The notes under the pieces are model-generated. The model was not told the DNA's origin and ran no database searches. It saw only the letters and a list, made by a program, of their open reading frames with translations. The translations under genes were made by a program, and so were the position numbers. A stretch of DNA of 64,000 nucleotides, taken from NCBI RefSeq assembly GCF_019879105.1, contig NZ_CP082249.1:2790001-2854000 (forward strand). The letters are read 5' to 3'. This DNA comes from Natrinema sp. SYSU A 869. Its GTDB lineage: Archaea > Halobacteriota > Halobacteria > Halobacteriales > Natrialbaceae. Positions 4,463 through 6,563 of the stretch are shown here, piece by piece; within the stretch, counting starts at the first letter, position 1, and every line of letters starts with the position of its first letter.

Positions 4463-5190
4463 GGCCACGGTCGTGCACTGGACGCCGGCGATCAGTCCGT
4501 CCGACTCCGACCGGCGATCGAATTTATCACACTGGTTTTGGATGCTCTGCTATACAGTTGTTCAATACCGATAGCACCTCTTCGGTAAGAGATGCAGGCC
4601 TCGGCACTCACGGCTCATCTTCTATCCATAATTCGGAACGAGATACTGACTTGTCGGCCTTCATTTGCATCTATATACTGCGCTAAACACCCGTGTCGGT
4701 TACGAAGAGACTTATCTCGTTCTATAAGATGTTTGTCTGCTCCAGAAAGTGCTATAGTAACCAAAAGAATACTCTTTCATCATTTCCTGGAAATGGAGTT
4801 TTCGTGGGAAACATTTTGAACTCGAACCCTGAAGAGCTGTGCCTACTAGATAAGATATGGGAATTGAAGAAAAGGTGATTAGTGCTATTGGCAAGGATTG
4901 TAGACTACCAGCAGATAGGTTTAATGGAGGTTCTATAGCGACAAGAATAATAAATAAACCCCATATTATTAATTCTATATAATATAAAATACTTATTTAG
5001 AAATATTTATTATGGACATTATAGTTAAATTCTCATCCAATACTATTGTAATCTTCGGTTCAGTTTATTCTCAAGGAAGATCTACACGGACATAGGCCTC
5101 TGATCTACCCGTGACTGGTCAAGATGCATCTTCCTAAAGTAGAACCTGATGAGCTCTTACTGTGTCTTGTTATTCATTACAGGCACTGAT
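4463..5190. other. AT-rich intergenic region with dispersed repeat copy
   Basis: Composition drops sharply from the surrounding GC-rich DNA, with runs of A/T between about 4900 and 5060. The first 250 nt hold the longest copy of a dispersed repeat. No ORF longer than about 75 codons is convincing. It is the downstream side of the island that carries the nuclease-like gene at 5191. Confidence 0.6.
4545..4725. repeat. Dispersed repeat, longest copy
   Basis: Shares GGCCTCGGCACTCA (4597-4610) exactly with 6421-6434 and shares a second block (4676-4688) with 1854-1866. Upstream, both 4.56 kb and 6.37 kb carry related ATACAG...ATT...GAGATGC text. The copies at 4.6 and 6.4 kb flank the AT-rich island in the same orientation. 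Confidence 0.4.
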
Positions 5191-6231
5191 TCAGTATTGA
5201 TGCTCGAAACTAAGCTCACTATATTCGTAAGAGTATGATTTGATACCTGCTTCATCACATCGTGAACTGAGGTTAGCTGGCAGCACATATGTCTGCTCAC
5301 CCAATTCTTTCTCGAGATGTTTGCAAAATGCGATGGTGATATCCCGGTCGCCGTCACCATCTTCTGCAGCCTCGAGAACCACTGCTAGATCCGGATCGTC
5401 GTAATCTGGTTTGATGACGTAGTCGCCCGGAGTGAAGGGGTTCTCTGCGTGCTCAAGATTAGTGTGCTTGTAGGTATAGAGCTTGATATCTTGATCATCA
5501 CAGTAGGATGCAAGCTTCGCGGGATGAATTTCGCGCCAGTTGCCAGGCCCGTCATCGAGCATATTTGGAAACGCGACGCTGACGGCTTCGCCGTCCATCG
5601 TCTGCCCGTAGAGATTGACATCGTGTTCCGGTGGGAGTACCTCTACGACCACCGCAACTGATGCATCGGTATCTTCTGCTTTGACCACTCGGTCACCGGG
5701 TTTGAACGGGTTCTCCGGCTTCTGATTCATGTGAGCCGTGTTCGGCCCCAGATCCTGTAACTCGTTCATCGGCCGAGCAGCGAGGTGAGCGAGTTTCTCC
5801 GGTTCCTCACCGGAGTATGCGTCTTGGGTTTTGACTTTCGACTTGAGCGTTTCAGTTCGCTCCCAGCCGAGGAGGATAAGCGCGTCTTCGTTGTCGCGGT
5901 GCCAGACCATCACGATGATATCGTCGTCCGGATCGTTCTCGAGGATATTTGCCGGACGAAACGCAGAGACGTCCCTCGAGGTTTTCACGTCGATCTCGTA
6001 GCCGAAGACATCGAAGTCGTGACCGGAGAAACTTTCCGGGTTGCAGCGCCGAATTGCCGCTTCATTCTCCCACCCCCACATCTCGACAGGGAGGTACTCT
6101 CGACAGAACTGCTCGAACGCAAGTTCACCGAGGTTTCCGATCCGTTTGACGTCCAAATCATCTGCACCCTGAATGACTGCTTGGTGATGGGCACGCTCTC
6201 TATCGATTTTGTCGGGGGTATAGAGATACAT
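5191..6231 (-). CDS. PD-(D/E)XK-like nuclease fused to two copies of an unknown repeat
   Basis: A 346-residue protein that I cannot name. The N-terminal 130 residues look like a PD-(D/E)XK fold: helix NLGELAFEQF (E36), then HDFDVFGYEIDVKTS with D74 and the D81-x-K83 pair. After a linker come two units starting NPFKPGD (174) and NPFTPGD (264). Both continue as V-K, an acidic strand, VAVV-E, PA-L, CD, IK-Y-Y, with a period near 90 residues. Composition is more AT-rich than its neighbours and repeat copies lie on both sides, suggesting transfer. It stands alone, with an AT-rich promoter region beyond 6231. Nuclease fold is inference from motifs; defence or DNA-processing roles are possible. Confidence 0.6.
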   Translation of the reverse strand: MYLYTPDKIDRERAHHQAVIQGADDLDVKRIGNLGELAFEQFCREYLPVEMWGWENEAAIRRCNPESFSGHDFDVFGYEIDVKTSRDVSAFRPANILENDPDDDIIVMVWHRDNEDALILLGWERTETLKSKVKTQDAYSGEEPEKLAHLAARPMNELQDLGPNTAHMNQKPENPFKPGDRVVKAEDTDASVAVVVEVLPPEHDVNLYGQTMDGEAVSVAFPNMLDDGPGNWREIHPAKLASYCDDQDIKLYTYKHTNLEHAENPFTPGDYVIKPDYDDPDLAVVLEAAEDGDGDRDITIAFCKHLEKELGEQTYVLPANLSSRCDEAGIKSYSYEYSELSFEHQY

Positions 6232-6563
6232 TACGTATGGATTAGTTGTTTGTATAATGTATCTTTCTTATCAGAGACCACTCCTGATACCGATAGAGCA
6301 AGAAGCGATACTCGAGTCTCCTAATGCGAATCTCTCGATGACATCACATTTTCGCCACCGTAGAACTACATACAGCCAGTATTGAGGCTGTAACGGAACG
6401 GGAGATGCTTGTAAACCGATGGCCTCGGCACTCATAGGGCTCGTCACCGCCGGATGCCGAGTCCGGCTCGGAGCGGGAGCATCGTCATCGGCCACGTGAT
6501 CCTACCGCCGTCGCTCCAAAGACGGTTTGGGTTCATCGGCGAAAACGGATACCGCTCGGTGAC
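6232..6563. other. Intergenic region, repeat copy
   Basis: Upstream region of the nuclease-like gene, AT-rich near 6232-6300. A third copy of the dispersed repeat lies at about 6363-6440 and includes a 6-bp hairpin (ACAGCC/GGCTGT) around 6370-6389. No gene seen. Confidence 0.5.
6363..6440. repeat. Dispersed repeat copy at island edge
   Basis: Contains GGCCTCGGCACTCA at 6421-6434, identical to 4597-4610 and in the same orientation, so the two bracket the 1.8-kb AT-rich island. Confidence 0.4.

What the first reader, a model, noticed from the sequence alone, without database searches (positions are those of the whole stretch)
5191..6231. Unknown PD-(D/E)XK-like protein with two C-terminal repeat domains in an AT-rich island
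The first 130 residues carry E36, D74 and D81-x-K83 in the order of the nuclease fold. Two 90-residue units (from 174 and 264) repeat NPF-PGD, V-K, VAVV-E, PA-L, CD, IK-Y-Y, a domain I do not recognise. The gene is solitary, AT-rich and bracketed by repeat copies, as defence or mobile-element genes often are.
Basis: partly seen in the sequence, partly recalled or inferred. Interest (0 to 1): 0.66.

Follow-up and report, generated by a model that had tools for sequence, protein, structure and literature searches.

The report
Mobile haloarchaeal nuclease with reader-like repeats
A salt-loving archaeon carries, in a small foreign DNA cassette, a gene for a probable DNA-cutting enzyme joined to two copies of a small binding domain; relatives travel on plasmids, islands and a virus, so it is most likely an undescribed restriction-type defence enzyme, although no activity has been measured.

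Summary
The 346-aa ORF is real, and no Pfam, NCBIfam or PADLOC model recognises it. The N-terminal ~165 residues are predicted to form a PD-(D/E)XK nuclease core. Residues 174-346 are two copies of a ~85-residue domain predicted as tandem SH3-like (Tudor/Agenet-like) barrels. The same domain is fused in other haloarchaeal proteins to an HNH nuclease, ParB_N or a SWIM finger. About a third of sampled Halobacteria genomes hold a copy or remnant. Copies sit on plasmids, in islands beside Mrr, Dam, McrB-like and BREX genes, behind tRNA-Arg, and in pleolipovirus Halfgib1 beside a cytosine methylase. In the window the gene lies in a 1.8-kb AT-rich cassette flanked by a 14-nt direct repeat. One copy of that repeat is the 3' end of the C/D-box guide RNA gene sR-tMet, apparently a recurrent integration hotspot. 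No methyltransferase family tested is shared by all carriers, and one carrier lacks all three. Best explanation: a solitary, mobile restriction-type DNA endonuclease whose SH3-like repeats find the target, perhaps modified DNA. The fold and the mobility are well supported; the cleavage, target and defence function are inferred.

The parts
5191..6231 (-). 346-aa protein: PD-(D/E)XK nuclease domain plus two SH3-like repeats
   Evidence: ORF; homologues in 125 of 391 Halobacteria genomes at E<=0.001; dN/dS ~0.05
5737..6231 (-). N-terminal nuclease domain, residues 1-165; predicted catalytic residues E36, D72, D81, K83
   Evidence: invariant columns; AlphaFold2 and Foldseek
5446..5718 (-). SH3-like repeat unit 1, about residues 172-262
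   Evidence: alignment of units; Foldseek to tandem Agenet/Tudor
5194..5445 (-). SH3-like repeat unit 2, residues 263-346; absent from the ~265-aa single-unit forms (pleolipovirus Halfgib1, Haloferax and others)
6421..6493 (-). sR-tMet C/D-box guide RNA gene; its 3' end (6421) is the boundary of the foreign DNA
   Evidence: Rfam RF02163, 70.9 bits, E 3.4e-13; homology to congeners starts here
6421..6434 (+). direct repeat copy inside the sR-tMet 3' end (att-like)
4597..4610 (+). second direct repeat copy, far end of the 1.8-kb cassette (att-like)
4597..6434 (.). 1838-bp AT-rich cassette (47% GC against 63%) whose only sizeable conserved gene is the nuclease; no integrase inside
   Evidence: the sister genome G144 lacks the gene and has a single perfect repeat copy at the same site, with other DNA beyond it

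Best explanation
The protein is a metal-dependent PD-(D/E)XK DNA endonuclease. Its C-terminal tandem SH3-like (Tudor/Agenet-like) repeats act as the target-recognition or reader module and hold the nuclease core on DNA, which E36/D72/D81/K83 then cleave. It works as a solitary restriction-type enzyme with no dedicated methyltransferase. It is carried by integrative mini-elements, plasmids and pleolipoviruses, and protects the carrier against competing viruses and plasmids; in the viral copy this would be superinfection exclusion. The likeliest self/non-self rule is that it reads a modification or feature of foreign DNA (Type IV-like), because no protective methyltransferase is common to its hosts. 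Shown here: conserved nuclease motif, predicted fold, repeat architecture, mobility, association with restriction genes, strong purifying selection. Inferred: DNA cleavage, target, modification dependence, defence.
For: E36, D72, D81 and K83 are invariant in 31-34 haloarchaeal homologues, including three at 24-34% identity with different or shorter C-termini. In ~190-aa single-domain relatives from other families of the phylum E36 and K83 remain invariant and the D81 site becomes D/E. AlphaFold2 pLDDT 84.5, pTM 0.82. Foldseek: influenza PA endonuclease, a PD-(D/E)XK enzyme, for the N-terminus (probability 0.97); tandem Agenet/Tudor for the C-terminus (E 7e-4); haloviral HHTV-2 and HCTV-2 proteins and phage proteins annotated 'restriction endonuclease'. 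The C-terminal domain is fused to HNH, ParB_N and SWIM elsewhere. Neighbours: Mrr + D12 methylase, McrB-like AAA_5 pair, BREX, Dcm in pleolipovirus Halfgib1. PADLOC: 106 models hit among 142 neighbour proteins against 7 among 129 control proteins. Patchy distribution. Carrier genomes: D12 24/50, C5 19/50, N4/N6 46/50; carrier G142 has none.
Against: No activity has been measured. The Foldseek nuclease match is weak (TM about 0.45, E 0.018). Conservation is unusually strong for a defence gene (65-90% identity between genera). Some copies have MTases nearby, as in Type II systems. Most neighbours are not defence genes, and the six neighbouring D12 MTases come from one related Halorubrum cassette. 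SH3-like domains also bind protein or RNA.
Confidence: 0.6

Rival explanations
1. A Type II restriction endonuclease that cuts an unmodified site; the host is protected by a chromosomal orphan methyltransferase or by the linked Dcm/Dam.
For: Dcm lies immediately upstream in Halfgib1 and a D12 methylase next to the gene in seven Halorubrum-type loci. Orphan MTases are common in Halobacteria (PMC10609329).
Against: Of 50 carriers, 26 lack D12, 31 lack C5 and 4 lack N4/N6 methylases; G142, with a full-length gene, lacks all three families. The linked MTases belong to different families in different carriers, and most loci have none. Type I and BREX MTases were not scanned.
Confidence: 0.2
2. A nuclease used by the mobile element for its own processing (integration, resolution, replication) rather than for defence.
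For: It rides on integrative elements at sR-tMet, at tRNA-Arg and in pleolipoviruses. A fold relative is present in haloarchaeal tailed viruses.
Against: The carrying elements are unrelated to each other. The window cassette has no other mobility gene. Only one of the records searched in the phage collection has it, and pleolipoviruses encode their own Rep and integrase.
Confidence: 0.12
3. An RNA- or host-directed effector: the PD-(D/E)XK domain cleaves RNA, as in the cap-snatching PA endonuclease, in an abortive-infection response.
For: The best PDB neighbours of the N-terminal domain are influenza PA endonucleases; SH3-like domains can bind RNA or protein.
Against: Only fold-level, weak similarity. 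The reader domain elsewhere is fused to the DNA-acting HNH and ParB_N domains, and the genomic company is DNA restriction.
Confidence: 0.08

Closest known systems
Type IV / modification-dependent restriction enzymes built as reader plus nuclease (Mrr, MspJI/PvuRts1I class; HHPV4I of pleolipovirus HHPV4, PMC10101028)
   Same: Solitary nuclease joined to a separate recognition module; HHPV4I shows that a haloarchaeal pleolipovirus can carry such an enzyme and was proposed to serve exclusion of other viruses.
   Different: HHPV4I is SRA-wH-HNH; here the order is PD-(D/E)XK then tandem SH3-like repeats. No Mrr_cat, SRA or wH domain was detected, and modification dependence has not been tested.
PD-(D/E)XK nuclease superfamily (fold level; influenza PA endonuclease is the nearest solved structure)
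   Same: E...D...DxK motif and predicted topology.
   Different: No detectable sequence similarity to any solved nuclease and no Pfam family.
Tandem Tudor/Agenet (Royal family, SH3-like) readers such as AGDP3, SGF29, SETDB1, UHRF1
   Same: Predicted tandem SH3-like barrels; AGDP3 AGD1-2 is the only PDB match at E<=0.001.
   Different: Those bind methylated histone tails in eukaryotes. No sequence similarity was found and the ligand here is unknown.
N-terminal-domain proteins of haloviruses HHTV-2 (R4TKP5) and HCTV-2 (R4TA73)
   Same: Structural match at 2.8-3.5 A rmsd, 23-24% identity over about 100 residues.
   Different: About 140 aa, without the repeats; function unknown; not retrieved by sequence search.

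Membership tests
PD-(D/E)XK nuclease superfamily | acidic residue on helix 1, D on one core strand and (D/E)xK on the next, all conserved | tested here: met
   E36, D72, D81, K83 invariant in the haloarchaeal set; E36 and K83 also in distant ~190-aa relatives
PD-(D/E)XK nuclease superfamily | alpha-beta core fold | tested here: met
   AlphaFold2 secondary structure and PA-endonuclease matches, prob 0.97 but TM about 0.45
PD-(D/E)XK nuclease superfamily | metal-dependent cleavage of nucleic acid | not testable with these tools
   needs biochemistry
Mrr-type Type IV restriction enzymes | Mrr_cat domain (PF04471) | tested here: not met
   no Pfam match above threshold; a neighbouring gene does match
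Modification-dependent restriction enzymes (functional class) | a reader domain fused to a nuclease | tested here: inconclusive
   a tandem SH3-like module is fused and also occurs with HNH; its ligand is unknown
Modification-dependent restriction enzymes (functional class) | no dedicated methyltransferase needed | tested here: met
   no common MTase family in 50 carriers; G142 has none of the three families scanned
Modification-dependent restriction enzymes (functional class) | cuts modified DNA only | not testable with these tools
   needs biochemistry
Type II restriction-modification system | cognate methyltransferase always linked or co-resident | tested here: not met
   Type I and BREX MTases not scanned
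Tudor/Agenet Royal family | SH3-like barrel | tested here: met
   predicted model and Foldseek only
Tudor/Agenet Royal family | aromatic cage that binds methyl-lysine | not tested

The most novel reading that the evidence does not exclude
A new class of modification-dependent restriction enzyme in archaea, in which a haloarchaea-specific tandem SH3-like module reads modified or otherwise marked foreign DNA and is combined modularly with different nucleases (PD-(D/E)XK here, HNH elsewhere). The gene is dispersed by mini-elements that integrate at the 3' ends of tRNA and C/D-box guide RNA genes.
Probability: 0.3. Interest if true: 0.72.

Novelty: new variant of a known kind. Interest (0 to 1): 0.52.

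Why it matters
Unnamed 'hypothetical proteins' of this family are carried by about a third of sampled haloarchaeal genomes and by a virus, under strong selection, yet no family library knows them. If they are restriction enzymes with a new reader module, they add a defence family to a lineage whose restriction enzymes are hard to recognise by sequence (PMC10609329 makes this point), give a candidate superinfection-exclusion factor in pleolipoviruses, and offer a salt-active nuclease with an unknown target. The reader domain, also found fused to HNH and ParB_N, could be tested on its own for binding to DNA.

Tried and rejected
Family libraries: no Pfam, NCBIfam or PADLOC match for the protein. 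Sequence profiles against the PDB gave only chance or weak hits: uL18 E 0.004, Spt5 KOW E 0.05, dynein light chain E 0.45; the Spt5 hit fits an SH3-like C-terminus but was not relied on. The IMG/VR scan found no relatives. CTAG orphan methylase as protector was rejected: according to PMC10609329 it is nearly absent from Halorubrum, where the gene is common. Single-partner system rejected: no neighbour cluster is found with most of the homologues. Integrase-carrying element in the window rejected: no integrase lies in the cassette, and haloviral-type integrases were not found within 20 kb of sR-tMet in congeners. The sigma-70 promoter scan is not informative for archaea.

Full report
OBSERVATION. 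The ORF at 5191-6231 (minus strand) encodes 346 aa. It lies in an AT-rich patch: cassette 47.1% GC, gene 52.8%, window 63.3%. Homologues at 60-94% identity occur across Halobacteria. dN/dS between the window gene and its near homologues is 0.04-0.07, and lower still in the N-terminal half in most pairs, so the gene is functional. The acidic/lysine signature is confirmed with one correction. E36, D72, D81 and K83 are invariant in alignments of 31 and 34 homologues that include three distant ones at 24-34% identity. The C-terminal repeats are confirmed: 35% identity between the two units, E 1e-15 in a single comparison, and both are recognisable in ~20 homologues. Haloferax, Halobaculum, Halorussus and other copies, and the virus Halfgib1, carry only one unit (~265 aa).

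FOLD. AlphaFold2 on a 34-sequence alignment gave pLDDT 84.5 and pTM 0.82; the N-terminal domain alone gave 83.2 and 0.82. E36 lies in the long helix 26-46, D72 at the start of strand 73-75, and D81/K83 in strand 78-85, the order expected for a PD-(D/E)XK core. Foldseek with the N-terminal domain returns influenza PA endonuclease structures at the top (best probability 0.97, but E 0.018 and TM about 0.45), a fold-level similarity only. In the viral structure library the best matches are uncharacterised phage proteins, including haloviral HHTV-2 and HCTV-2 proteins at 2.8-3.5 A and phage proteins annotated 'restriction endonuclease'. The C-terminal half matches tandem Agenet/Tudor modules (AGDP3 AGD1-2, E 7e-4, probability 0.99), so the unknown domain is predicted to be a tandem SH3-like barrel.

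MODULARITY. A profile of the repeat unit finds the domain in other haloarchaeal proteins. These were read out and scanned: one is fused to an HNH endonuclease (L127), two scanned ones to ParB_N (L123, L130; two more, L131 and L132, look the same by eye), one to a SWIM zinc finger (L128), and others stand alone or carry an unknown tail. Conversely, the nuclease domain occurs with unrelated C-termini in L088-L090 and as ~190-aa single-domain proteins in other families of the phylum, where E36 and K83 remain invariant and the D81 position is D or E. A module shared by an HNH nuclease, a PD-(D/E)XK nuclease and ParB-like proteins is most simply a DNA-targeting module (inference).

MOBILITY AND COMPANY. 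Of 391 sampled Halobacteria genomes, 125 have a match, patchily within genera, and many of these are fragments. Copies lie on plasmids and in the induced pleolipovirus Halfgib1 (virus described in PMC7911831), where a C5 cytosine methylase is the gene just upstream. In Halorubrum-type loci an Mrr-domain nuclease starts 72 bp downstream, followed by a convergent D12 adenine methylase. In five loci an AAA_5 (McrB-like) ATPase and a ~450-aa partner lie alongside (no McrC domain was detected, so 'McrB-like' rests on AAA_5 only). On a Halomontanus plasmid it is in a BREX island. A control comparison gave 106 PADLOC models hit among 142 proteins within 2 kb of the gene, against 7 among 129 proteins from 40 arbitrary chromosomal stretches of carrier genomes. 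The counts are of models, not proteins, the six D12 methylases are one related cassette, and gene calling was a simple acidic-ORF filter, so this is an enrichment, not a rate.

CASSETTE AND INTEGRATION SITE. The direct repeat GGCCTCGGCACTCA occurs exactly twice in the genome, at 4597-4610 and 6421-6434. The right copy is the 3' end of an sR-tMet C/D-box guide RNA gene at 6421-6493, minus strand (RF02163, E 3.4e-13). In congeners, homology to the window begins at that 3' end (within ~20 bp) and everything beyond it differs from strain to strain. The sister genome G144 has no copy of the nuclease and a single perfect repeat copy at this site, followed by unrelated DNA (a one-mismatch copy lies 3.6 kb away). 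In 9 of 19 congeners a further copy with at most one mismatch lies within 20 kb on the variable side in the same orientation, and none in reverse orientation (control 0 in 480,000 strand-bases). The nuclease lies directly downstream of sR-tMet on the same strand in the window and at least five other Natrialbaceae loci (G322, G208, G378, G105, G151; two further loci within ~4 kb). In most of these the similarity around the gene ends near the gene itself, as if the gene had been brought there repeatedly or recombined. In Halorubrum it lies about 250-900 bp downstream of tRNA-Arg(CCG) in six loci. Other sR-tMet islands carry defence-like cargo (LmuB, REase_II, PtuA and other model hits). No integrase is inside the window cassette.

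MECHANISM. The anatomy suggests a nuclease core steered by an SH3-like reader. Whether it is Type II-like or Type IV-like was tested indirectly: if it cut unmodified sites, all carriers should share a protective methyltransferase. D12 methylases are found in 24 of 50 carriers, C5 in 19, N4/N6 in 46, and the complete genome G142 with a full-length gene has none of the three. The persistent CTAG methylase is nearly absent from Halorubrum (PMC10609329), where the gene is common. This weakens the Type II reading and favours recognition of a modification or another foreign mark, but Type I and BREX methylases were not scanned and the inference is indirect. The precedent for a pleolipovirus carrying a modification-dependent nuclease is HHPV4I (PMC10101028), which has a different architecture. 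From the raw sequence, an AT-rich TATA-like stretch ~25 nt upstream of the start codon suggests its own promoter (inference).

VERDICT. Confidence is about 0.9 that residues 1-165 have a PD-(D/E)XK fold, about 0.8 that the repeats are SH3-like, about 0.7 that the gene is mobile and defence-related, and about 0.35 that it is modification-dependent. It is filed as a new variant of reader-plus-nuclease restriction enzymes in what it probably works like; membership in the Mrr family was tested and not met.

Noticed in passing
window 6421-6493 (-) and 4597-4610; L206-L224: The 3' end of the C/D-box sRNA gene sR-tMet appears to be a recurrent integration hotspot in this genus: variable DNA starts at it in every congener examined, and a further copy of its terminal 14 nt is found in 9 of 19 congeners plus the window. 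A 2021 review of archaeal tyrosine recombinases (PMC8371274) does not contain the word sRNA or snoRNA in its main text, so this may be undescribed.
   Followed up: partly
L127:4434-5333, L123, L128, L130-L132, L120-L126: The SH3-like repeat domain is a wider haloarchaeal module fused to HNH, ParB_N or SWIM domains, or standing alone; it has no Pfam entry.
   Followed up: partly
L016, L017, L019, L020, L023, L027: Halorubrum-type copies lie about 250-900 bp downstream of the 3' end of tRNA-Arg(CCG), on the same strand.
   Followed up: partly
L044, L045, L047, L049 and many rows: Many homologues are fragments or split copies, suggesting frequent loss after acquisition.
   Followed up: no
L057:1-7500 (Salinigranum marinum plasmid): Upstream of the homologue lie E2/UBC and ThiF-family genes and a folE/queC/QueE 7-deazaguanine gene set, which may be further defence or DNA-modification loci.
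   Followed up: no
L209:8875-18734 and L216:14743-19132: Direct-repeat-bounded islands at sR-tMet in congeners carry defence-like genes; PADLOC hits over the island set include LmuB, a Type II nicking endonuclease model, PtuA and DndD.
   Followed up: partly
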